A DNA stretch of 47,391 nt from a virus. The position numbers and the translations under genes are program-made. Positions 9,487 to 38,203 of this stretch are shown piece by piece. The stretch is from the IMG/VR virus record IMGVR_UViG_3300025949_000037, positions 1 through 47,391 of that record. One strand, given 5' to 3'. The notes under the pieces are model-generated. The model did no database searches, was not told the origin of the DNA, and saw only the letters and a program-made list of their open reading frames with translations. Positions within the stretch are counted from its first letter, which is position 1, and every line of letters starts with the position of its first letter.

Positions 9487-11202
9487 ATGGAACGTGTTGC
9501 CTTAAACCGGCCCCCGCCGCCGCCTTTGCACGTAGCGCGCCAACACAACGTGCACCTGCCGCCGCTGTACAGGGTGTCAGCGGAGCGCATGCGGCGCAAT
9601 TTCGCGTTGTTTGTAAAGGAGGCTTGGAAAATAATCGAGCCGGCCACCCCGCTTATTTGGAACTGGCACCTCGATGTTATTTGCGAGCACGTGCAAGCCC
9701 TCATGCAAGGCACGTTAGGTAAGCGCAACCTAATCATCAACGTGCCCCCCGGCAGCATGAAGTCGACTATTGTTAGTATCTGCCTCGTGCCGTGGATGTG
9801 GACGTGGAAGCCGTGGTATCGCGGTTGCTTTGCATCAGGGGTCCCCGGCATCGAGTCGCGCGACAGCGGTAAGTGCCGCATGGTGCTCGAATCAAAGTGG
9901 TACAAGGAAACTTTTGACATACAGTGGAAGTTCTCGCGTGACCAGAACGAGAAGCTGTACTACCGCAATACGAAAACCGGTGAGCGCCTCGCACTCACTA
10001 CCGGAGCCGGTGTCACTGGCCATCGATTTATGGGCCTCTTTGTTGACGATGCTTTGGATGCTCGTAAGGCGTTCCAACAGCCCGAAGTCGACAAAGTTAA
10101 CCGGTGGTGGGATAACGCGTTTTGGAACCGCGTGGCCGATCCCTCGACTAGCACTCGCTGCATTATCGGGCAACGGCTGCGTGAGGATGATCTACCGGGC
10201 CATGTGTTAGAGCGTGACGGCCTCGCTACATGGGAGCTGCTTAAGATCCCGCAGATGTGGGAGCAGGAAGAGGAAGACACGCGCCACACGACGACACTCG
10301 GGTGGACGGACCCGCGCAAATACTACAAAACACTCGACGAGCAAGGTACTGCGGTTGGCGCACACTGGGGTTTTGTTGATCACAAGACCAAAGTTGAAAC
10401 GCCCGTTACAAATGGCCTCATGTTCGAGGCGCGCTTTCCAACGGATGTCATCGATAGCGATCGCATCGTCCTCGGCCAAAGCGGTTTCGAAGGTCAACAC
10501 CAGCAGCGCCCCAGTATGCTGCAAGGTGAGATTTTTACGAAAGGCCACGCGCAGTTTATCTACCGTTCGCAGCTGCCCGTCGGTGTCATCGTACAGCGTA
10601 TGTTGTCGATCGATAGCGCAATCAAAGACAAAGAGGAAAACGATTACTCCGTATTGCTCGAGGCATGGGAGTTTGATCGCGGTGTGTTTATCAACAACGT
10701 GATCCGCGACAAGTGGCGGTACACGCAGCTTAAGGAACAGGTCGCACTTACCTCGCTCGTCGTTAACCCAAGCGCACTGTTGATCGAGGACAAAGCCTCC
10801 GGCCAGCAGCTAATACAGGAATACCAAAACGATGGCAAGTTCCCCGTCGTCCCGATTGAAACTAACATCGACAAGCCCGCTCGCGCCCGGCCACTTACGC
10901 CGTACTGGGAAGCGAATCGCGTGTTCTTTCCGCTGGATCCTGAGACCGGCCAGCCCGAAGCATGGGTGCCGATATTCCTCAAGGAGCTCTATAACTTCCC
11001 GAAGGCGAAGCACGACGACCAGGTGGACGCCTTTACGCAGTTGTTAACGTTCCTCTTCCTGCGCCCAGGCGCCCGTGGGTTGCTTGAGTACTATGGCGTG
11101 GACAAACGCTTGCAGGAAGCGCAACGTAAGGCTGAAGCTGAGGCCGATGCACAACACAACATCGTACACACGGCATATCTTATGGGGGCACAACCGCAAT
11201 GA
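9487..11202 (+). CDS. Terminase large subunit (packaging ATPase and nuclease)
   Basis: This motor docks on the portal, pumps DNA into the prohead and cuts it. The ATPase half shows the terminase Walker A PPGSMKST (residues 87-94), Walker B LFVDD (184-188) and the coupling motif TRCIIGQR (223-230). The C-terminal RNase H-like nuclease has acidic residues at Asp376 (SIDSAIKD), Glu434/Asp435 (LLIEDKASG) and Asp510/511/514 (KHDDQVDAF). The 571-aa length is normal for the Terminase_6/TIGR01630-type family. The ATG at 9487 lacks a clear ribosome-binding site. ATG 9589, behind GCGGAG, is an alternative, but it would remove the start of the N-terminal region. Confidence 0.95.
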   Translation: MERVALNRPPPPPLHVARQHNVHLPPLYRVSAERMRRNFALFVKEAWKIIEPATPLIWNWHLDVICEHVQALMQGTLGKRNLIINVPPGSMKSTIVSICLVPWMWTWKPWYRGCFASGVPGIESRDSGKCRMVLESKWYKETFDIQWKFSRDQNEKLYYRNTKTGERLALTTGAGVTGHRFMGLFVDDALDARKAFQQPEVDKVNRWWDNAFWNRVADPSTSTRCIIGQRLREDDLPGHVLERDGLATWELLKIPQMWEQEEEDTRHTTTLGWTDPRKYYKTLDEQGTAVGAHWGFVDHKTKVETPVTNGLMFEARFPTDVIDSDRIVLGQSGFEGQHQQRPSMLQGEIFTKGHAQFIYRSQLPVGVIVQRMLSIDSAIKDKEENDYSVLLEAWEFDRGVFINNVIRDKWRYTQLKEQVALTSLVVNPSALLIEDKASGQQLIQEYQNDGKFPVVPIETNIDKPARARPLTPYWEANRVFFPLDPETGQPEAWVPIFLKELYNFPKAKHDDQVDAFTQLLTFLFLRPGARGLLEYYGVDKRLQEAQRKAEAEADAQHNIVHTAYLMGAQPQ

Positions 11203-17364: not shown

Positions 17365-18861
17365 ATGACAACCGCCGGCGAAGTTGGAATGGTGGGGCAT
17401 CCACCCGTGGTTACCATCGGAGTGGCGCAGTTGAATCCCGAACGCAAGAAGTACAAGGACATGTGGGAGAAGCCCGAGTACCGCGCCTTTGCGCCCGGCG
17501 AGCACCTCATCCCGAAGTTCATGCAAGTGGTCAAGCCTACAGAGCGTGCGACCATAATTGACTTTGGCGCCGGCACCGGGCGCGGCGCGTGGATGCTCGC
17601 GGCGATGGGTTATAAGGTGCAGATGCTCGACTTCGCACCAAACTGCCTCGACCAACAAGTGCTCGAAGCGATGCAGACGCAGATAACACCGGAGGACGGC
17701 GTAAAGGTCCTTAACTTTGCGGTCGCAGACTTAAGCCAGCCCATCCCCTACAAAGCCAAGTACGGCTACTGCACCGATGTAATGGAGCACATACCTACCG
17801 ATCAAGTTGACACCGTGCTCAACCACATCCTCATGTCCGCGCAGCACGTGTTTTTCCAGATCTCCACCGTCGACGACTCGTGCGGGGAGATGATTGGAGA
17901 AACATTGCACATGACCGTGCAGCCGCCCGACTGGTGGGCCAAAAAGCTGTCGCAGTTTGGTGTCGTGACACACTACACGGAAACGCAGTTTGATAATAAC
18001 CGCAATCCCGTTAGCTGCATTTTCTACGTATCCGCCTGGCAGGATGCGAAACGGTTTGTGGAAACGGGCGAGTTGAATGTCACAGAAGCCACCTGCCTTG
18101 CCAACATGCGTGCGAACGTGCAGCGCGGCTACCGCGAGGCGCGGCCCTTCCAACAGAATGATTGCGAAGTTATCCTGCTAGCCGGCGGCCCGTCGTTGAA
18201 TGACTATGTGGATGAGATAAAGGCATTGCGCGCCTCCGGCGCTAAGCTCGTAACCGTGAATAATACCTACAGGTGGGCATTGGAACACGATTTGTTACCG
18301 TCCGCACAGGTAATGGTTGATGCGCGCGAGCACAACAAGCGCTTTGTGCTGCCGGTGATCAACCACTGTTGGTATCTTATGTCCTCCCAGGTACACCCGA
18401 ATGTCCTCGAAGCCCTCCCCTTTGATCAGGTTATCCTCTGGCATACGGGCATGGAGTCCTCCATCCCCCTCCTTAACGCGCGCAACGAGCCTTACTACGT
18501 CGTTCCGACTGGAAGCACGGTTGTCCTGCGTGCATTCTCACTCCTACTTATGCTCGGCTATCACAAATTCCACGTATTTGGGTTCGATAGCTGCCTTCGT
18601 GAGATGGAAGATCGCCACGCATTTACACACCACGCCTACGAGCAGAAAGAAAACGACGGTCAGCACGTAACTCCTGTAACATGCGGGGCCAAGGTGTTTT
18701 ACTGCCATCCATGGATGGTCAGTCAGGCGCAGGAGTTCCAGGACCTCATGCGTGTGATTGGTGAGCATATCGACATGGACGTACGCGGCGACGGGTTGAT
18801 CGCAGAGATTATCAATACGGCCGCCGCGCTCGCGACGGCCTCGGAGTTTCAGTTAGATTAA
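17365..18861 (+). CDS. Methyltransferase fused to DUF115/MAF-like domain
   Basis: Residues 60-225 are a class I SAM-dependent methyltransferase: motif I IIDFGAGTGRG (64-74), an acidic residue after the second strand (MLDFAP), NFAVADL near 120 and DVMEHIP (138-144). Residues 265-490 match the DUF115/MptE-like fold: GGPSLN (274-279), VTVNNTYRW (297-305) and MVDAREH (317-323), a family that includes flagellin glycosylation factor Maf and 6-hydroxymethylpterin diphosphokinase. In Maf-type proteins this fold binds a nucleotide sugar or diphosphate substrate. A two-step modifying enzyme for a sugar or small molecule, possibly decorating DNA or virion proteins, is my inference. Confidence 0.75.
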   Translation: MTTAGEVGMVGHPPVVTIGVAQLNPERKKYKDMWEKPEYRAFAPGEHLIPKFMQVVKPTERATIIDFGAGTGRGAWMLAAMGYKVQMLDFAPNCLDQQVLEAMQTQITPEDGVKVLNFAVADLSQPIPYKAKYGYCTDVMEHIPTDQVDTVLNHILMSAQHVFFQISTVDDSCGEMIGETLHMTVQPPDWWAKKLSQFGVVTHYTETQFDNNRNPVSCIFYVSAWQDAKRFVETGELNVTEATCLANMRANVQRGYREARPFQQNDCEVILLAGGPSLNDYVDEIKALRASGAKLVTVNNTYRWALEHDLLPSAQVMVDAREHNKRFVLPVINHCWYLMSSQVHPNVLEALPFDQVILWHTGMESSIPLLNARNEPYYVVPTGSTVVLRAFSLLLMLGYHKFHVFGFDSCLREMEDRHAFTHHAYEQKENDGQHVTPVTCGAKVFYCHPWMVSQAQEFQDLMRVIGEHIDMDVRGDGLIAEIINTAAALATASEFQLD

Positions 18862-24282: not shown

Positions 24283-25980
24283 ATGGCCTACGATGTGCGG
24301 TCATTGGCCCCGACCGGCTTCACGAAGCGGTTAACACAAGCTGTTACCTACGGCCTGCAAGGCGGCTACTTCTCCCCGCAGAACCCGCCAATTCCGCAGC
24401 AGCAAGACACGGCTGGTCGCCGGTTTGACTATCTTACCGGCTATAACATTGCGACGCGCCCGCGCCGCGACTCAGGCATCGATTTTCAAACGCTGCGCAA
24501 CTTTGCGAAGTACTACGACATCCTTCGCCTGCTTATCGAGAAGCGCAAAGATCAAATTGTAACCTTCGGCTGGTCGATTACACCAACCGATGCGGCTGCA
24601 CAAGCGGCGAAGAAAGACACGGCGCTCGCGGATGCACTGGCACAGCGTTGTGCGGCGGCGCAGAAGTTCCTCCGCTATCCCGACGGGCGCATGAGCTGGA
24701 ATGTGTGGCTGCGGTCGTTGATTGAGGACATGTTGGTCCTCGATGCCATCGCGGTGTGGCCGGTGTATGAGGGTAAGCAGCTGTTGCGCCTCGAGCGCAT
24801 TGACCCCGCTACGATCAAACTCGTGATTGACGAGTCAGGCCGTACGCCAGAGCCCCCGTTCCCCGCCTACCAGCAAGTCCTGCACGGCATTCCAACAGCG
24901 GATTTCCTCAAAGACGAGTTGCTGTACTTTATCTCGAATCCAGCGAGCGATCGTGTGTATGGGCTCGGTAAAGTGGAACAGGCACTCGTGACGATACAGA
25001 TTGGTCTGCGTCGTGAAACAAGCCAACTGCAGTTTTTCACTGACGGCAACGTGCCGGCAGCGCTTGTGGGCGTGCCTGAAACGTGGCCTGCACAAACAAT
25101 CAAACAGTTTCAAGAAACCTTCGACAGCATCCTCGCGGGCGATACCGGAGCACGGCGCAAGATTTGGTTTGTGCCCGGCGAAGCGGCGAAGAACATGAAG
25201 GAGTTTACGTCTGAGGAGGCGTTGTTAAAAACGCCCTTCGACGAATGGATCGCGCGTATCCTCTGTTTCCTTTTCGGCATCGCCCCAACACCCTTTATTG
25301 CGCAAGTAAATAGGGCCACGGCCGAATCCGCAGAGGATACGGCGCGGGATGAGGGCTTGGCGCCCACCTTGATGTTTATGAAAGACATCATGGACTTCGT
25401 CCTTGCGCAAACGATGAAGTTGGATGGCATCGAGTTTAGATGGGATATGGAGGAGGAAAACGATCCCCATACCCAGGCCCAAATCGACGATCTAAAGTTG
25501 TCGAAGGGTGTTATTGGTATCGATGAGATCCGCCAGCGCGACGGCCTTAAGCCGCTTGGTGTGGCGCCGATGATCTTCCTTGCCTCAGGTCCCATCCCGG
25601 TGTCGATGTATGTCGACGGCACCGCACCTAACTTGCAAGCGCCGCCTCCGACGCCTGCACCAATGGATCACGGGCCGCCGCAAGCCACACATCCGGAAAC
25701 GGGTGAGCCGATTGGGCCGGCGCCCAAGTCCAAGCCCGCCAAGCTGCTGCCACGCGAGTCGCTCGGCAACGCGAAAGCGGACCAGGAGCGTGAACCAGAT
25801 CTCGGTAACGTCGATGTTACCACCCACCGGCCGGCGGAGCCGTTGTCACCAACCAAACACGATAAAGGAGGCGGCCTGAGGAAGGCTGGCCCCTTTCGCT
25901 ACAAGAAGGCGACGAATTGGTACAACACCACTAAAGCGCGCGGTGCTCTTGGCCGCGCCGTCTACAAAACAGAACCTTAA
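24283..25980 (+). CDS. Portal protein
   Basis: The dodecameric portal forms the DNA entry vertex and the docking site of the terminase. Features of the family include FQTLRNFAKYYDILRLLIEK and RKDQIVTFGWSITP in the N-terminal clip region, IDPATIKLVIDESGRTPEPP, a conserved block FISNPASDRVYGLGKVEQAL, and FGIAPTPFIAQVNRATAES in the crown-side helices. The C-terminal 100 residues are Pro-rich and basic (PPPTPAPMDHGPPQ...). It is the first gene of the head module and overlaps the following gene by 38 bases. Confidence 0.9.
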   Translation: MAYDVRSLAPTGFTKRLTQAVTYGLQGGYFSPQNPPIPQQQDTAGRRFDYLTGYNIATRPRRDSGIDFQTLRNFAKYYDILRLLIEKRKDQIVTFGWSITPTDAAAQAAKKDTALADALAQRCAAAQKFLRYPDGRMSWNVWLRSLIEDMLVLDAIAVWPVYEGKQLLRLERIDPATIKLVIDESGRTPEPPFPAYQQVLHGIPTADFLKDELLYFISNPASDRVYGLGKVEQALVTIQIGLRRETSQLQFFTDGNVPAALVGVPETWPAQTIKQFQETFDSILAGDTGARRKIWFVPGEAAKNMKEFTSEEALLKTPFDEWIARILCFLFGIAPTPFIAQVNRATAESAEDTARDEGLAPTLMFMKDIMDFVLAQTMKLDGIEFRWDMEEENDPHTQAQIDDLKLSKGVIGIDEIRQRDGLKPLGVAPMIFLASGPIPVSMYVDGTAPNLQAPPPTPAPMDHGPPQATHPETGEPIGPAPKSKPAKLLPRESLGNAKADQEREPDLGNVDVTTHRPAEPLSPTKHDKGGGLRKAGPFRYKKATNWYNTTKARGALGRAVYKTEP

Positions 25981-28900
25981 CCGCGAGCTCACAGCGCTCG
26001 GCGAGCGTTTGACGGACAAGCTGTTTCCACTCGTGCGCGCAGCGCTCGCGGGTGCAGGACCGCATCCAAAGTTAGGTAAGGCTGAGGGCGACGATGACAG
26101 TACGCCCACTCCCGGTTTGCAGCCCGACGGTTCTATTGTCACGCAAATGGGCACGGTTGTGCCCGCTTCGCAAGTTGCGGAGATTCTAGCTGCTATTGCT
26201 GATGAGGACTTTGCGCTCGTGGAGGGTGTGTTGACACCCGATGTAATCGAAGCTTTTAAGAAAGCGGGTTACACCGAAGTGCAGCGTATCACGACCTTCT
26301 CACAAGATCCTAAAGACATCCTTGAGGTGCTCGATAAGGACGCAGTTGCGTACGCGGAGGAGCGGGGCGGGGAATTGATTACGCAGCTCTCTGAAGCCAC
26401 TCGCGACAAAGTACGCGGTACGATTGAGGACGCGCTTACGGAGGGATGGAGCAAGCAGGAATTCTCAGCGGAGTTACAAGCCAACTACGCTTTCAGCCCG
26501 CAACGTGCAGATATGATTGCGCACACAGAGTTGGCATTCGCACACAGTTACGGGCGCGTGGAGCCGATGAAAGCCGGCGGTGCGACCAAAAAGAAATGGT
26601 TACTGTCGGCGGACCATGATCCGGATGAGGATTGTTACTGCTCGGAAGCAGCAGAAGCGGGTTGGGTTGATATAGATGATAACTTTGTCGACGACGACGA
26701 TTACGACTATCCACCCGGCCACCCAAATTGCTGGTGCGACTGGGTATCTAACTTAGCCGGTGGAGACGAGGAAGATGACGATGACGGTGGGGACGACGGC
26801 GCCGGCCCCGATGAGGGAGACGACGGCGGGGCCGTTGATAAGGCTGCCGGTCTTAGCCAATGCGACAGGTGCGCTGTTGGTAAGCCTTCCTCCGGCGAAC
26901 TACACAAGGCGGTACGCGATATCTTCGCACGGTTGGAACGTCTCCGTGCACGTCGTGACCCCGATGGAATCGAGCGTGACCAGAGCGAGACACTTCCTCG
27001 AATCAACCCGACTGGAAGCGATTATGGCGAAGGACATGAAGCCGGCGACGACGAGGAGCTGGCAGACGATCCCGAGTCACCAACGTCAGCAGCGAAAGCG
27101 CTTTCGGGGCTGACCAAATACCCGATAGATGATAAAGCCCATGAGGCTGCACTGTCGCCACGTAACGCGCACCCCGAACCAACTAGCGCGCAGCGTCGCG
27201 CAGGTAACTACAAGATGGGGCACATCGTCGTCGGTGGGCTGCCAATCGCGATCGAAAATCCGGCGGGGACCCCGCGCAAGCCGGGTTGGACTGAGATACA
27301 AGCGCATTACGGCTATTTCAATCGGACAACAGGAGCGGATGGAGATCATCTGGATGTTTTCGTGCGACCGGGCACCGACCACGAGTGGGCTGGCACTGTC
27401 TACATAGTAGACCAGTTCAAACTCGATGGTACATTTGATGAGCATAAGGTCCTGTTAGGGTACGATTCGAAAGAAGCGGCTGTACAAGCATACCTTGGCA
27501 GTTACCAAGCTGGCTGGAAGTTAGGTCCTGTATCGTCGCTGTCGTGGGGTGCGTTTATTGAGTGGATGCGCGGGGATATCTCGCAGCCGGTTTATTTGTC
27601 GACGCATGTTATGAAAGGCGACGTGGATGGGCATCCGTTCCACGGCAACCAGTACACGGATGGCACGGGTGGCGGGGAGAAGGACAAAGGTAGCGATAAG
27701 GGGCCAAAACCCACTGCCACGACTGTTGCAGGTGCTAAGGGTGGTGTGCACGAGCTATTGTCCTCAGGACATAGCTTCACACTCGACGAATTGCAGCACG
27801 CAACCGGCGCGAGTCTCTCGAACCTCAAAACCGCGCTTTCAGACCTCAAATCTGACAAGTACGCAGGTAAGTATGGGAAGCTCGAGATTACGAAAAATCC
27901 GGACGGCTCGTATCAGGTTAAGAGTACGGCGGGTGCTGCGAAACCTATCACTACAAGTGTTGGCCATGTTGCGGGTGCAAAAGAGGATGTGCCGGCTGCA
28001 AAACCTGAAGCAGCCGCTAAGCCTGTGACCGGGTATGAGGACCTACCGCACCTCGTACAACCCTCCTCCAACGCCGAGCACGACAAGGTGTACGCTGCGA
28101 AATTAAACGTGGCGTTGGTTACTTTGAATATGTCGGCGGGCACCGAAGCGGATATAAAGGCATTTAAAGACACCAAAGCGCAAGCGATGGCGGAGTGGCA
28201 GTACGCAGCGCACGGGGATAAATCAACACCCAAAGAACAACAAGTGTTCCAGGCGGATAAGAACCTTGTTGCGAATTTGAATAAGGGCATGTCTAACGCC
28301 GCTGCTTACGCGCAGTGGAAGAATGATACGGCTGCGGAAAAGGCCGGCACGTTGTATTCATCGGGTAAACCTATTTCCTCGAGCGAAGTAACTTCGAGCG
28401 CGCATTTAGGCGAAGGTGTTGGTAAACCAAGTGCCGAATCCTCGCGAGGCATCCCCACTGACACAGCGGTGGGGGTAGCACCGATTGGTGTGCACGAGTT
28501 TGCTGCTGATACGAAGGATGTGTTGTCGGGCAAATCCGCCTTCTCGGAAGGTCTTGAGAAACTACACAATGCGCTGTCTAAGGACAGTTTGGATGCAAAA
28601 GGTAACAAGATATCGGTTGAAAAACAGTTGGCGGGGGAATTAAAGGACAGTCCCAATTTCCAAGCGCTCAAAGAGGCTTACGCTAAAAGTGATTCGAGCG
28701 GTGGCTATTCACTTGAGGCTAAGTTAGTACAAACATGGGCTGCGTCGTCCGGTGATAGCAACGATCTTTCCGTTGCTATGCAATTAGCGGCGAAAGAAGT
28801 GTTTGGTATGAAAGATAATGAGATTGCAACTTCGGCGCTAGGCTCGTTGCAATCGCACGGATCTACAGAAACGTTGATGACGCATGCTGCATCAGCCGTG

Positions 28901-29395
28901 TCGGGCACTTACCTCAATGACTATAAAGATAAAGTGCCTGCAACTGTAATGCACGAGGGTTTAAAAGAATTTGTGGCCGGTATGTATCGCAACACGCAAT
29001 CGTGGTTGGCCTCGCGCGGCATTACGGAATTGTATGTTGCGCGCGGCATGCACATTGACCCTGCAGCTGCGGTGTCCATCCGGAATGTTAAGTTGCAACC
29101 AATGAGCTCGTTCTCGACGAGCTTAAGTGTTGCTAGTGGCTTTGGAGGGAGTGGCAATGTGTATATTACGCGTGTGCCCGCTTCGCAAGTAATTGGTAGT
29201 TACCGTACTGGCTACGGTTGCTCGAATGAGCACGAAGTAGTCGTATTGGCGCACAGAGATATGAAAGCGGTTGAGTTGTCAACAGACGCTCTAGAAGTTA
29301 ATGCACACGGCTCCTATAAGACACCAGCGCGTAATGTGAGTGCTTACATACAAGCGAAGTTGGAAGAGAACGCGAAGTACAAGGGCGGTTATTGA
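25943..29395 (+). CDS. MuF head-morphogenesis polyprotein with InPase-like and ADP-ribosyltransferase domains
   Basis: The 1150-aa protein has several parts. Residues about 120-270 are a MuF/SPP1 gp7-like minor head domain (AHTELAFAHSYGR, then PPGHPNCWCDWV). A very acidic linker follows (245-300). Residues about 385-545 match a phage inorganic-pyrophosphatase-like domain (YGYFNRTTGADGDHLDVFV, FDEHKVLLGYDS). DGHPFHGNQYTDG (562-574) is a linker found in phage head proteins. A small wHTH-like part is at 600-660. The C-terminus is an ADP-ribosyltransferase with Arg1034 (VARG), STS at 1058-1060 and the ExE Glu1096/Glu1098. It is probably packaged and injected. The GTG start overlaps the portal gene. 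Confidence 0.85.
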   Translation: MLLAAPSTKQNLNRELTALGERLTDKLFPLVRAALAGAGPHPKLGKAEGDDDSTPTPGLQPDGSIVTQMGTVVPASQVAEILAAIADEDFALVEGVLTPDVIEAFKKAGYTEVQRITTFSQDPKDILEVLDKDAVAYAEERGGELITQLSEATRDKVRGTIEDALTEGWSKQEFSAELQANYAFSPQRADMIAHTELAFAHSYGRVEPMKAGGATKKKWLLSADHDPDEDCYCSEAAEAGWVDIDDNFVDDDDYDYPPGHPNCWCDWVSNLAGGDEEDDDDGGDDGAGPDEGDDGGAVDKAAGLSQCDRCAVGKPSSGELHKAVRDIFARLERLRARRDPDGIERDQSETLPRINPTGSDYGEGHEAGDDEELADDPESPTSAAKALSGLTKYPIDDKAHEAALSPRNAHPEPTSAQRRAGNYKMGHIVVGGLPIAIENPAGTPRKPGWTEIQAHYGYFNRTTGADGDHLDVFVRPGTDHEWAGTVYIVDQFKLDGTFDEHKVLLGYDSKEAAVQAYLGSYQAGWKLGPVSSLSWGAFIEWMRGDISQPVYLSTHVMKGDVDGHPFHGNQYTDGTGGGEKDKGSDKGPKPTATTVAGAKGGVHELLSSGHSFTLDELQHATGASLSNLKTALSDLKSDKYAGKYGKLEITKNPDGSYQVKSTAGAAKPITTSVGHVAGAKEDVPAAKPEAAAKPVTGYEDLPHLVQPSSNAEHDKVYAAKLNVALVTLNMSAGTEADIKAFKDTKAQAMAEWQYAAHGDKSTPKEQQVFQADKNLVANLNKGMSNAAAYAQWKNDTAAEKAGTLYSSGKPISSSEVTSSAHLGEGVGKPSAESSRGIPTDTAVGVAPIGVHEFAADTKDVLSGKSAFSEGLEKLHNALSKDSLDAKGNKISVEKQLAGELKDSPNFQALKEAYAKSDSSGGYSLEAKLVQTWAASSGDSNDLSVAMQLAAKEVFGMKDNEIATSALGSLQSHGSTETLMTHAASAVSGTYLNDYKDKVPATVMHEGLKEFVAGMYRNTQSWLASRGITELYVARGMHIDPAAAVSIRNVKLQPMSSFSTSLSVASGFGGSGNVYITRVPASQVIGSYRTGYGCSNEHEVVVLAHRDMKAVELSTDALEVNAHGSYKTPARNVSAYIQAKLEENAKYKGGY

Positions 29396-29396
29396 G

Positions 29397-29678
29397 ATGG
29401 TAGATGTAGTTGAGTTGGACAATTCTGTTGAGAACGCAGATTGGGTAAAGCACACATGGGACTTGCCGCCTTATAAGTCGCGCGAGTTTTTTGCGTTAGT
29501 GCCACTCAAGCAGCTCGATCATTTTCGTACGCTGCCCGTATACCAACAAGCGGTTAAATCCGGTTTGATACACGACGATGAGTGGGTTGCTGATTATGTG
29601 GAGCCCGAGATATCGCTCGCTGAAGCATTTCTCGACGCATTGGACAACGCTACCAAACGTAATGCGCAAAAGCCCTAG
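29397..29678 (+). CDS. Hypothetical protein, candidate immunity/partner of the ADP-ribosyltransferase (93 aa)
   Basis: ATG 29397 lies one base after the toxin-domain stop with AAGGGCGG (29379-29386) as ribosome-binding site. The acidic product (MVDVVELDNSVENADWVKHT ... EISLAEAFLDALDN) has no recognised motif. MuF-type polymorphic toxins are often followed by a small acidic immunity gene, and acidity suits binding to an ART active site. The immunity role is inferred from position and size only. Confidence 0.55.
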   Translation: MVDVVELDNSVENADWVKHTWDLPPYKSREFFALVPLKQLDHFRTLPVYQQAVKSGLIHDDEWVADYVEPEISLAEAFLDALDNATKRNAQKP

Positions 29679-29816: not shown

Positions 29817-31079
29817 GTGGAAATCATTCAACCTATCTTCGCTCGCATCACGAAAGTGGACGAGGTAACCCGCACCGTGACCGGTCGGGCTACGCAGGAG
29901 ATGGTAGATCGCGACCGGGAAGTGTTCGATTACGTAACGAGCAAGCCTAATTTCCAACAGTGGTCGGCTTCGGTGTTCTCGGATACCGGCGGTAAGAGCT
30001 TAGGGAACGTTCGCGCGATGCATGGAAGCGTTGCCGCCGGTATTCTCAAAGACATCCAGTTCCTCGATCATGAAAAAGCGATCGATGTTACAGCGCACAT
30101 CACCGACGATCAGGAGTGGAAGAAAGTTACCTCTGGAACCTACTCCGGTTTCAGCATCGGCGGCAAGTACACGAAGAAGTGGCCTGATGTTGTAAACGGC
30201 AAAATGGTCCAGCGCTACACCGCAGACCCCGCCGAGATCTCCATTGTCGACCGACCGTGTGTGCCGGCTGCGAAGTTTTTTACCGTTCACAAGGCCGACG
30301 GGAGCGACATAGAGGTGCCCTTTGCACCATCGCTCATGCTGCCCATGGAAGGGACCGCCACGGATGGCGGAAAAACAGCAGGCCTTGACCTACTGGTTAA
30401 ACACGGCATTAAGCGTGTTGAGTTGAAAAAGGAAGTGCTGCCGCGTGGCGAGCAAGGTCGATTCAACAACGCAGGTCACGCCGGTAGTGAAAGGTCCGCT
30501 GCAGCGCTCGCAGCTGCTGGGCGCGCGTTCGCGTTTGCTCGCAAGACGACTTCGGGCAGCGTCAATGCTGCGACCGAAGCGCAGCAAGCGACACAGAAGG
30601 CAATTGAATCCGGGACTCCCGAGGCGCACAAAACCGCGTGGATCAAACACACGGCTGCTGCGACGTTGCACGGCACACCGGATGAAAACGACACGCACGC
30701 AAAGTCAGCGATCGAGGCCCACACGGAGGCTGCGAGCTTCCACCGCCAGTACATGAAAATAGCAGGTGGCAGTGGTATCGGAGGCGGTAGCTCGCCCGAC
30801 GATGTATCCAAGGCGGCTGCGCCGGATAAGGGTGCGGGTGCGATGACAGCGACCGGTGCCGCGATTGCCTCGAGCCACCAAGCGATTTCAACGAATGATG
30901 TCGAGGAACATTTCAACGCCGCTGCCGCGCACGCTGCCGCCGCGAAGGAACAGTTGGAACTCGACAACAAGGAACTGGCCGCGCACCACATCAACGCGGC
31001 CCAAGCGCACATGCAGTGGAACAGTGGAAAAACTGTTAAGATGCAGGTCCCCGCAACACACGGACACGTGTTGCACTAA
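29817..31079 (+). CDS. Prohead maturation protease (HK97 U35-like) with Ala-rich scaffold tail
   Basis: Residues 1-165 show the HK97-type prohead protease order: FARITKVDEVTRTVTGRATQ, the catalytic His in NVRAMHGSVAAGI, the Ser in YSGFSIGGKYTK and the acidic block PAEISIVDRPCVPAAKFF. The enzyme cleaves scaffold and capsid N-termini during maturation. The long C-terminal half (about 220-420) is Ala/His-rich helix (AEAHTEAASFHRQYMKIAGG, AAAAHAAAAKEQLE), typical of scaffold-like regions. GTG 29817 is the start, behind GGGGCG. Fusion of protease and scaffold-like parts is common in siphoviruses. Confidence 0.75.
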   Translation: MEIIQPIFARITKVDEVTRTVTGRATQEMVDRDREVFDYVTSKPNFQQWSASVFSDTGGKSLGNVRAMHGSVAAGILKDIQFLDHEKAIDVTAHITDDQEWKKVTSGTYSGFSIGGKYTKKWPDVVNGKMVQRYTADPAEISIVDRPCVPAAKFFTVHKADGSDIEVPFAPSLMLPMEGTATDGGKTAGLDLLVKHGIKRVELKKEVLPRGEQGRFNNAGHAGSERSAAALAAAGRAFAFARKTTSGSVNAATEAQQATQKAIESGTPEAHKTAWIKHTAAATLHGTPDENDTHAKSAIEAHTEAASFHRQYMKIAGGSGIGGGSSPDDVSKAAAPDKGAGAMTATGAAIASSHQAISTNDVEEHFNAAAAHAAAAKEQLELDNKELAAHHINAAQAHMQWNSGKTVKMQVPATHGHVLH

Positions 31080-34410: not shown

Positions 34411-35055
34411 GTGTATGCACCGCTCACAACGGTGGACGCTGTAAAGGCGTGGGCCTACGCCGGAAACAACAAAGCCACCGCTGACGATAAGCAGATTCAA
34501 GTCCTCATCGGTCGATGCAGCGAACTCATCGGCCGACATTGCTCGCGTGCGAATTTAGGCGAAGTTCTGCCGTTTTCTGAACTGCGTTTCACCGGCGGCG
34601 CGGCCCGGCGCTTTTTCCAAGACCGCATGTGGACGCTCGTGCTACGCAATTACCCGATTGTATCGATCACCTCAATCAGCACCGGTAGCGGCAATAGTAT
34701 CCCGATCATAACACCCGACCAAGTTATGGGTGGTAATTGGGGTGCGTGGGTGGAAGACACCTTGGAGCCGCGTGCGATTAAGTTCTTTGGTGTGCAAACG
34801 ATGAACCCCGGCGCGCTGTCGATTGCCTACACGGCAGGCTACAACGGTGTTGATAATGTGCCAGGCGGGTTGGCGCAGGCCTGTTGCCAGTACGTAATGG
34901 AAGTGATGCGCTCGTCCAACAATTTACTGCTCAAATCCAACGCCCTCGCGGGCGAAACGACGACGTTTGACACAGGCGACTTAAATTGGGGCATGAGTAA
35001 CCGTACGCTCGCTATGTTGCAGCCTTATAAAGATCAAGCGGGCTGGGCGCTGTAG
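34411..35055 (+). CDS. Head-tail connector (HK97 gp6-like adaptor)
   Basis: The 214-aa protein has the opening of gp6-like connectors (YAPLTTVDAVKAWAYAGNNK... KQIQVLIGRCSELIGRHCSR, helices that pack on the portal), a central beta region (VLRNYPIVSITSISTGSGNS) and GALSIAYTAGYNGVDNVPGG, followed by a helix bundle containing the Cys pair ACCQYV. Such adaptors seal the portal after packaging. GTG 34411 is the start. Confidence 0.75.
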   Translation: MYAPLTTVDAVKAWAYAGNNKATADDKQIQVLIGRCSELIGRHCSRANLGEVLPFSELRFTGGAARRFFQDRMWTLVLRNYPIVSITSISTGSGNSIPIITPDQVMGGNWGAWVEDTLEPRAIKFFGVQTMNPGALSIAYTAGYNGVDNVPGGLAQACCQYVMEVMRSSNNLLLKSNALAGETTTFDTGDLNWGMSNRTLAMLQPYKDQAGWAL

Positions 35056-37459: not shown

Positions 37460-38203
37460 ATGGCAGCAGACGATAATATCCAAACTAACTGGACCGCCGA
37501 CTTTAGCGGGATCAACAGTGCGCTTGGCGAGGTAAAGGATAGCTCCGACGAAGCGTTCTCGAAGATGATTGAAGGCGCGACGGCGGCCTCTGAAAAAGTG
37601 GCCGAGTCGCAGCAGCACGTGGCGGAGGAAGTACACGAAGCGGCTGAGCACATACACGAGGAAGGCGTCAACATCGGCGAGACGCTGGAGGGGATTAAGC
37701 GCGACTTTGACGAGTTGAAGGAAATAACCGGCTTTGCGTTTATCTACGAGTACGTTGAGCGGTTGGTTGAGAAGATAGGAGAATTAACAGAACGTGCTGA
37801 CCATATGGAAGATATGGCCAGCATCGCGCGCATAACGACTGACCAGTACCAAGCGCTGTCGGCAGCGGCTGAGGAAACGGGCGTGTCGATGGGCGTAGTT
37901 GATCGGGCAGTCGACCGGCTCGTGTTGATGTTGCAGCAAGCACGCAACGGCGCAGCGGAAGCACAAGACAAGTTGCATTTGCTCGGTATCACAAACGAGC
38001 AGATCACAAACGGTTCCTTCGGGACCGCTGAAGCGCTCGAAACCATCCATCGGGCATGGAGGAGGCGGGAACTTCCACCGAGGAAACCAATGCCATCCTC
38101 GAAGTCTTCGGTATTCGTGGCGCGCTCGCAGCGGAGGTGTTTAAGGAGTTTGATGGTTCCGCAGCGGGTGTTAGTGAGAAGATGCGCGCGGTTAATGGTC
38201 TGA
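37460..38203 (+). CDS. Tape measure protein, N-terminal part (frame changes near 38055)
   Basis: Starting one base after the chaperone stop, the first about 200 residues are helical (SDEAFSKMIEGATAASEKVA, then GELTERADHMEDMASIARI and TTDQYQALSAAAEETGVSMG), a typical tape-measure N-terminus. After EALETIHRA the frame degenerates into Arg-rich nonsense (WRRRELPPRKPMPSSKSSVF) while the -1 frame continues sensibly (MEEAGTSTEETNAILEVFGI). The gene is therefore split by a one-base change. The real N-part probably ends near 38055. Confidence 0.75.
   Translation: MAADDNIQTNWTADFSGINSALGEVKDSSDEAFSKMIEGATAASEKVAESQQHVAEEVHEAAEHIHEEGVNIGETLEGIKRDFDELKEITGFAFIYEYVERLVEKIGELTERADHMEDMASIARITTDQYQALSAAAEETGVSMGVVDRAVDRLVLMLQQARNGAAEAQDKLHLLGITNEQITNGSFGTAEALETIHRAWRRRELPPRKPMPSSKSSVFVARSQRRCLRSLMVPQRVLVRRCARLMV

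What the first reader, a model, noticed from the sequence alone, without database searches (positions are those of the whole stretch)
25943..29395. Virion-type MuF polyprotein with InPase-like and C-terminal ADP-ribosyltransferase domains
One 1150-aa frame combines a MuF minor-head domain, an inorganic-pyrophosphatase-like domain, the GHPFHGNQ linker and a complete R / STS / ExE ADP-ribosyltransferase core (Arg1034, 1058-1060, Glu1096/Glu1098). Phage MuF proteins are known carriers of polymorphic toxins, and T4 Alt shows that a capsid-carried ART can be injected. This architecture suggests an effector delivered with the DNA. The role of the InPase-like domain is unknown; autoprocessing or metal binding are guesses.
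Basis: partly seen in the sequence, partly recalled or inferred. Interest (0 to 1): 0.85.

Follow-up and report, generated by a model that had tools for sequence, protein, structure and literature searches.

The report
Head-borne ADP-ribosyltransferase with coupled partner gene
An uncultured phage carries, on a protein that looks built into its head, an enzyme that probably tags host proteins with ADP-ribose when the DNA is injected, and right behind it a small gene, found next to such enzymes in other phages too, that probably keeps the enzyme in check while new phages are made.

Summary
The 1150-aa frame is real: MuF and InPase (both over Pfam cut-offs, InPase acidic residues intact), GHPFHGNQ, and a C-terminal R-S-ExE ADP-ribosyltransferase (ART). 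Pfam sees no ART here, but relatives, an AlphaFold model (pTM 0.79) and structural alignment support it; nearest named family is DRAT. MuF-ART toxins are known (EFV toxin, Bxa), so the basic idea is not new.

(1) One nucleotide behind the ART stop lies a 93-aa gene of an unnamed family (NxDWxK..WDL). In 48 contigs all 17 copies lie beside an ART of this family (15 of 22 ART records, 0 of 26 without). A scan for the partner alone found an ART beside 21 of 24. Best reading: a cognate inhibitor; neither this nor delivery is shown. It precedes many effector domains.

Verdict: new variant of a known kind (MuF polymorphic toxin), with a new partner family and an apparently undescribed tag.

The parts
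24283..25980 (+). Portal protein gene, directly upstream; overlaps the MuF frame by 38 nt
   Evidence: phrog_2662 E 1.1e-67, PF04860 over cut-off
25943..29395 (+). MuF-InPase-tag-ART protein, 1150 aa (start codon not settled)
26405..26740 (+). MuF (minor head) domain, residues 155-266
   Evidence: PF04233 over cut-off
27188..27568 (+). InPase domain, residues 416-542; E438, R445, Y456, D466, D468, D471, D499 conserved
   Evidence: PF18823 E 1.4e-36; 13 of 13 rows
27629..27652 (+). GHPFHGNQ tag, residues 563-570
28550..29392 (+). ADP-ribosyltransferase region, residues 870-1150; core strands about 1029-1113
29042..29044 (+). R1034, invariant 19 of 19
29228..29236 (+). E1096-H-E1098 (ExE), both Glu 18 of 18
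29397..29678 (+). Partner gene, 93 aa, pI 4.6; ATG one nucleotide after the ART stop; candidate immunity protein
29817..31079 (+). Prohead-protease-like gene downstream
   Evidence: phrog_9427 'head maturation protease' E 3.5e-9, phrog_21715 E 4.8e-18
9487..11202 (+). Terminase large subunit
   Evidence: phrog_38 E 7.5e-62

Best explanation
This is a virion-borne effector of the MuF polymorphic-toxin kind with its own inhibitor gene. The MuF domain docks the protein at the portal inside the prohead (inferred from MuF precedents). The C-terminal domain is an R-S-ExE mono-ADP-ribosyltransferase, probably arginine-specific, distantly related to DRAT (fold and residues supported by computation; activity and target inferred). 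It leaves with the DNA and modifies proteins of the newly infected cell (inferred). The 93-aa product of the coupled gene binds and blocks the ART in the producing cell while heads are built and is not carried along (linkage shown; inhibition inferred). The InPase domain is probably an active metal-dependent phosphohydrolase clearing PPi or a nucleotide signal after entry (residues shown; role inferred). GHPFHGNQ is a recurrent cargo tag or processing site at effector-module borders (recurrence shown; role inferred).
For: ART: R1034, E1096, E1098 invariant in a 19-member family at 17-34% identity to the window copy; 7 of 19 members match PF07357 DRAT at E <= 0.1, best 1.1e-8; AlphaFold pTM 0.79; VIA-align top rows BECa Z 6.0, rmsd 4.7 over 162; HopU1 Z 5.5, 5.2 over 164; iota toxin with NADH Z 5.3, 4.8 over 153; by title or recall all 50 rows shown are ART-fold proteins. 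Head context: portal upstream, MuF fused; independent relatives MuF-ART (L160, L190), portal-ART-partner (L161), InPase-ART (L184). Partner: its only match in the phage collection lies next to the ART homologue of Bacillus phage SP-15; 17 of 17 copies in 48 contigs (two of them weak, partial matches) are within 1039 nt of an ART, same strand; 15 of 22 records with ART, 0 of 26 without, Fisher 1.6e-7; in a partner-only scan 21 of 24 profile-positive loci have the ART, 0 of 11 profile-negative matches do; stop-start gaps mostly -4 to +24 nt, taking the in-frame start nearest the stop. Precedent: Bxa MuF-ART is neutralised by Bsi, a small binding protein (PMC11699363, passages).
Against: No PDB Foldseek match below E 0.1 and no VIA Z above 6.0, a range in which unrelated folds can also score. 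The window ART itself matches no Pfam family at E <= 0.1. Of 24 ART copies checked (two nearly identical), 10 have the partner by strict pattern, one more by profile, two in part, and 11 show none in the stretch held (one of these, L091, is cut off at the ART; its whole contig has a weak match). In L016, L161, L172, L179 and L185 the partner is fused behind the ART in one chain, which fits a second domain or subunit as well as an inhibitor. The AlphaFold model of a natural ART-partner fusion had pTM 0.57, so docking is not resolved. One contig (L163) has the partner with no ART in the 3.8 kb upstream that is held.
Confidence: 0.55

Rival explanations
1. The partner is not an inhibitor but an obligate second subunit or C-terminal domain of the effector (lid, target recognition, or escort into the head); gene splitting and fusion explain its constant place.
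For: Partner fused directly behind the ART in L016, L161, L172, L179 and L185, and a partial copy behind two ARTs of L068.
Against: In SP-15 and the Streptomyces plasmid it lies upstream; L163 has it without an ART in the stretch held; L012 has two; 11 of 24 ART copies checked show none.
Confidence: 0.28
2. The C-terminal domain is an ART-fold protein without transferase activity on host proteins (NAD glycohydrolase, or an inactive structural domain of the head).
For: No direct evidence of activity; residues T1059 and S1060 vary in the family; an ART-fold NAD(P) glycohydrolase is reported (PMC13285283, search listing only).
Against: R, a Ser/Thr and both Glu of ExE are kept at 17-34% identity; ExE with an Arg-modifying family as nearest named kin favours transfer (recall).
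Confidence: 0.12
3. The protein is only a structural MuF minor head protein with decorative extensions and is never injected.
For: MuF proteins without toxin domains are common (PMC5576092, passages); injection was not tested here.
Against: Catalytic residues of two enzyme domains are intact, the same ART rides on MuF, portal and InPase carriers, and a coupled partner is kept.
Confidence: 0.1

Closest known systems
Bxa of Bacteroides prophage PhiBxa (MuF-ART with immunity proteins Bsi and BAH; PMC11699363, abstract and passages seen)
   Same: MuF at the N-terminus, Arg-modifying ART at the C-terminus, small non-enzymatic gene beside it, head-morphogenesis region
   Different: Here an added InPase domain and tag; no ADP-ribosyl hydrolase (PF03747) in any of 20 records with this ART (many are short fragments); no PF00589 integrase in any of 48 records. 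Sequence relation of the partner to Bsi, and of the two ARTs, was not tested
MuF polymorphic toxins (PMC5576092, abstract and passages seen)
   Same: muf gene directly behind portal; toxin domain at the C-terminus; small ORF behind (reported there for 89.4% of 191)
   Different: That paper found them only in temperate phages and prophages, mostly of Firmicutes; these contigs show no tyrosine integrase (fragments)
Polyvalent proteins and the InPase domain (PMC5512222, passages seen); Pseudomonas phage Pa193 portal gp19
   Same: InPase domain in virion-linked multidomain proteins; Pa193 gp19 residues 632-761 match, E 9.1e-19
   Different: Here it sits between MuF and ART. In Pa193 portal residues 529-765 had no discernible density (PMC11042391, passages)
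T4 Alt and Alt/VIP2 ARTs fused to MuF (PMC9503650, passages seen)
   Same: RSE-type head-borne ART; that paper reports many Alt/VIP2 and N4-type ARTs fused to MuF
   Different: The nearest named family here by profile is DRAT; in the passages found the paper names DraT only with DraG systems
Bacillus phage SP-15 SP15_257/SP15_258
   Same: Both genes of the cassette: ART 33%, partner 51.6% over 60 aa
   Different: Partner upstream; both annotated hypothetical; tag pattern absent from the record; NCBIfam finds nothing in SP15_258; MuF and InPase were not sought there by Pfam

Membership tests
MuF polymorphic toxin | N-terminal MuF domain over curated cut-off | tested here: met
   PF04233 37.2 bits, cut-off 29.6
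MuF polymorphic toxin | Gene immediately downstream of portal | tested here: met
   Portal 24283-25980 overlaps by 38 nt
MuF polymorphic toxin | C-terminal toxin-type domain | tested here: met
   ART by family conservation and model
MuF polymorphic toxin | Small ORF directly behind, candidate immunity | tested here: met
   93 aa at 29397, conserved linkage
MuF polymorphic toxin | Temperate phage | tested here: inconclusive
   PF00589 in none of 48 records; records are fragments and serine integrases were not sought
MuF polymorphic toxin | Toxicity and neutralisation by the partner | not testable with these tools
   needs a bench test
ADP-ribosyltransferase, R-S-E clade | Arg, Ser/Thr and ExE core residues | tested here: met
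   R1034 19/19, position 1058 S/T 16/19, E1096 and E1098 18/18
ADP-ribosyltransferase, R-S-E clade | ART fold | tested here: met
   pTM 0.79; the 50 VIA rows shown are ART-fold by title or recall, but Z is at most 6.0; PDB Foldseek not significant
DRAT (PF07357) | Match over the curated cut-off by the window protein | tested here: not met
   no match at E <= 0.1; 7 of 19 family members match at that level
DRAT (PF07357) | DraG-type ADP-ribosyl hydrolase in the same record | tested here: not met
   PF03747 in none of 20 records, the 105,784-base record of this virus among them; records may be incomplete
InPase (PF18823) | Profile match and acidic metal-site residues | tested here: met
   125.8 bits, cut-off 26.8; residues 13/13
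T4 Alt | Close sequence or structure relation to Alt | tested here: inconclusive
   A cyanophage protein named as arginine ART ranks 23 at E 0.16 in BFVD

The most novel reading that the evidence does not exclude
K-G-[DE]-x-x-GHPF-[RH]-GNQ-[WY]-T is a general capsid-cargo signal of a large group of uncultured phages: a short peptide that marks each effector module for packaging into the head (or for release by a head protease), so that phages can swap toxins, ARTs, nucleotide enzymes and their inhibitors as tagged cassettes. The present protein is one such cargo, and the ART with its coupled inhibitor one of the commoner modules.
Probability: 0.35. Interest if true: 0.85.

Novelty: new variant of a known kind. 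Interest (0 to 1): 0.62.

Why it matters
Head-borne effectors are still hard to recognise from sequence. A two-gene ART-partner cassette carried by MuF, portal, InPase or polyprotein carriers, present also in the cultured Bacillus phage SP-15, makes the question directly testable: does the partner silence the enzyme, and is only the enzyme packaged? The tag, if it is a cargo or cleavage signal, would let one read a list of injected proteins from sequence, and a cultured Xanthomonas phage (Rb1) carries a copy in a protein annotated 'internal head protein'. Both may widen MuF toxins beyond the temperate, mainly Firmicutes, phages where they were described.

Tried and rejected
Window ART against PDB sequences: no ART match; the A4 profile gave three weak hits (E 0.59 and worse), judged chance. 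PDB Foldseek of the ART model: nothing below E 0.1; estrogen-receptor and other rows there are judged chance. Direct look-up of close relatives in IMG/VR with the ART and the MuF region: only the same virus. The ART was never searched for in genome contigs: the alignment was not conserved enough, and I spent that scan on the tag.

Prohead protease as the processing enzyme of the tag: PF04586 was found in 2 of 44 tag contigs, 0 over the cut-off, so this family does not explain the tag; other protease families were not searched there. MuF was found in 18 of 44 tag contigs (14 over cut-off), so the tag is not tied to MuF alone. The 44 are one per contig of about 15 kb or more among the 80 rows listed of 119. 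Of the 40 tag positions I used from the cut listing (nine of the 18 MuF records) 40 are on the MuF strand, 26 downstream and 14 upstream; the comparison with random places there ignores that tags cluster.

Docking of partner on ART by AlphaFold of the natural L016 fusion: pTM 0.57, undecided. Partner against Pfam and PDB sequences: nothing significant; against plasmids: none; a second partner copy against phages: none. 'No paper prints the tag' rests on two full-text searches of the held library for GHPFRGNQ and five variants, which says little, as papers seldom print such letters. That DRAT-type ARTs on phage heads are not described rests only. InPase-selected contigs as control: ART 0 of 20, tag 0 of 20; those were not searched for the partner.

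A considered reading, recoding that joins portal and MuF, was left: the frames differ, and by eye I saw no canonical slippery heptamer in the 121 bases read; not tested further.
Full report
What is in the sequence. The window is an IMG/VR virus record of 47,391 bases. A longer record, IMGVR_UViG_3300005563_000031 (105,784 bases), matches it at 100% in each stretch compared and is taken as the same virus. The frame 25943-29395 is open and codes 1150 aa. Pfam finds MuF at residues 155-266 and InPase at 416-542, both over their cut-offs, and no ART. The portal gene lies directly upstream, a prohead-protease-like gene at 29817, terminase at 9487, head-tail adaptor at 34411 and tape-measure-like proteins at 37460 and 38056, so the gene sits in the head module.

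The ART. tblastn of residues 870-1150 against 50,697 phage records found, at E <= 0.01, only Bacillus phage SP-15 (two records of it, 33%, E 3e-21) and, in 72,556 plasmids, 15 actinobacterial ones. A profile from eight sequences, L013 among them (a tag-bearing contig, but found by ART similarity), found further copies in the loci held. The 19-member alignment keeps R1034 in 19 of 19 and E1096 and E1098 in 18 of 18; the Ser/Thr site is less strict. Scanned one by one, 7 of 19 members match DRAT, the dinitrogenase reductase ADP-ribosyltransferase, best E 1.1e-8; the window copy does not. AlphaFold gave pLDDT 77.8 and pTM 0.79 for the region. PDB Foldseek was not significant. VIA-align placed ART-fold proteins in every one of the 50 rows shown (toxins, PARPs, Arr; for CNFy, anthrax lethal factor and the Rhs toxins I rely on recall), best Z 6.0, rmsd 4.7 over 162 residues. 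In BFVD, SP-15 leads at E 1.7e-14, and a 1390-aa uncultured-phage protein named 'Phage head morphogenesis domain-containing' ranks third at E 2.1e-10. ExE with DRAT as nearest named kin suggests arginine as target (inference).

The partner gene. ATG 29397 lies one nucleotide behind the ART stop; it codes 93 aa, pI 4.6. Its only relative in the phage collection at E <= 1 is SP15_257, which lies directly beside the ART homologue SP15_258. Behind the ARTs of L011, L012 and L013 I saw the same pattern, NxDWxK..WDL. A profile started from these five recruited seven more sequences, each beside or fused to an ART of this family (a second copy in L012 about 1 kb away). The strict pattern occurs 25 times in 1.44 Mb of loci, 11 distinct, all in loci that hold an ART. 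In 48 whole contigs the partner profile matched 17 places in 15 records (two weak and partial, in G029 and G044); all 17 are on the strand of an ART and at most 1039 nt from it; records with ART 15 of 22, without 0 of 26 (Fisher 1.6e-7; leaving out records used as seeds, 4 of 11 against 0 of 26, p 0.005; several records are near-duplicates). A scan of IMG/VR for a DNA pattern of the partner alone gave 37 stretches, two of them held before. Of the 35 new loci, 24 match the partner profile and 21 of these hold the ART on the same strand; the three without are L163 (3.8 kb upstream held; by eye a portal-like and an InPase-like frame, no ART) and L164 and L165, where under 0.8 kb upstream is held; the 11 pattern matches that fail the profile have no ART. 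Several of the 24 are near-copies of each other or come from contigs met before (L169, L185, L186). Where the genes are separate, stop and nearest in-frame start are mostly -4 to +24 nt apart; in some loci the partner is fused behind the ART. No ADP-ribosyl hydrolase was found in 20 records holding this ART.

Carriers. Among ten proteins with this ART chosen from the partner scan, MuF precedes it in L160, L166 and L190, a portal domain in L161, InPase in L184. Nine of ten neighbouring proteins that I chose for scanning match head-and-packaging families. So each half of the window's architecture recurs independently; I saw no second MuF-InPase-ART protein.

The tag. In 161 non-redundant copies (of 187) positions outside the search pattern are also kept: G at -4 in 93%, D or E at -3 in 95%, K at -5 in 58%, G at +11 in 61%. 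Copies lie within 40 residues of the first start codon in 36 of 161, and up to six stand in one frame. In 44 contigs a wider pattern matched 1 to 20 times each, the reversed control never. Of 150 stretches behind the tag (of 161; I dropped 11 short ones) Pfam recognises ADPrib_exo_Tox in 5, ART-PolyVal in 4, DUF3626 in 4, DRAT in 3, zeta toxin in 2, NUDIX and Arr in 1 each, and others; over two thirds match nothing at E 0.001. The ART family of this window occurs in 18 of 44 tag contigs (two of them weak) and in 0 of 20 contigs chosen by InPase; the 19-row profile contains tag loci, but the earlier 8-row profile already found it in 18 of 118 tag stretches, the window's own virus left out, some from one contig. 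Its absence from the other 26 tag contigs shows that the tag is not tied to this ART. A cultured example is Xanthomonas phage Rb1, whose 'internal head protein' XPA09464.1 starts with an InPase domain and has the tag further on. What the tag does is not shown.

How it most likely works. MuF proteins sit with the portal inside the head; SPP1 gp7 is the studied case (as told in PMC5576092, passages). T4 Alt shows that a head-borne ART can be injected (as told in PMC9503650 and PMC5512222, passages). Bxa shows that a MuF-ART is toxic when made in E. coli and that a small neighbouring protein blocks it by binding (PMC11699363, passages). The present locus fits that model with other sequences: ART on a head carrier, coupled small acidic protein, no hydrolase found. 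The InPase domain keeps the acidic residues of a working enzyme; PMC5512222 proposes PPi or nucleotide processing for such domains (passages). Delivery, activity, target and inhibition remain inferred.

Against the known. MuF-ART fusions, InPase in virion proteins and small ORFs behind MuF toxins are all in print; I therefore file this as a new variant. New, as far as the searches named in Tried and rejected go, are the DRAT-related ART family on head carriers, its linked partner family, and the tag. The absence of tyrosine integrases in 48 records would fit virulent phages, unlike the temperate setting reported for MuF toxins, but the records are fragments.

Noticed in passing
window 25943-25980: Portal and MuF frames overlap by 38 nt in different frames, while relatives L012 and L175 have portal and MuF in one chain: natural split, indel or recoding.
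   Followed up: no
L068 (IMGVR_UViG_3300032516_000159): A 3054-aa frame with three ARTs of this family; its contig has eight tags.
   Followed up: partly
L015/L038 contig, G001: 20 copies of the GHPFxGNQ tag in one 69-kb contig, all on one strand.
   Followed up: partly
L169 and L012, ART frame: A different repeated motif, HPRDEKGEF / HPKDDKGRW, stands twice in the ART protein; similar stretches (PRGEQGRF, HAADEDGRF) are in the window's protease-like frame 29817 and frame 31083. Possibly the same kind of tag.
   Followed up: no
window 17365-18861: One frame with a methyltransferase-like part (under cut-off) and an MptE-like (6-hydroxymethylpterin diphosphokinase) domain, E 2.8e-17.
   Followed up: no
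L163: Partner gene without ART in the stretch held, near what by eye look like a portal frame and a small InPase frame: possible orphan immunity gene.
   Followed up: partly
L008 (Streptomyces goshikiensis plasmid): A 1192-aa protein annotated as NUDIX holds the ART; a partner-like domain ends the gene before it; ExE reads QKE there.
   Followed up: no
Pseudomonas phage Pa193 portal gp19: The InPase part (632-761) lies in the stretch 529-765 that had no density in the cryo-EM map.
   Followed up: no
L158, L162, L173, L177, L178, L181, L182, L187, L191, L192: Ten contigs share one repeated DNA (reads NVDWIKPTWDFF or similar, often with stops) that matches the partner DNA pattern but not its profile.
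   Followed up: no
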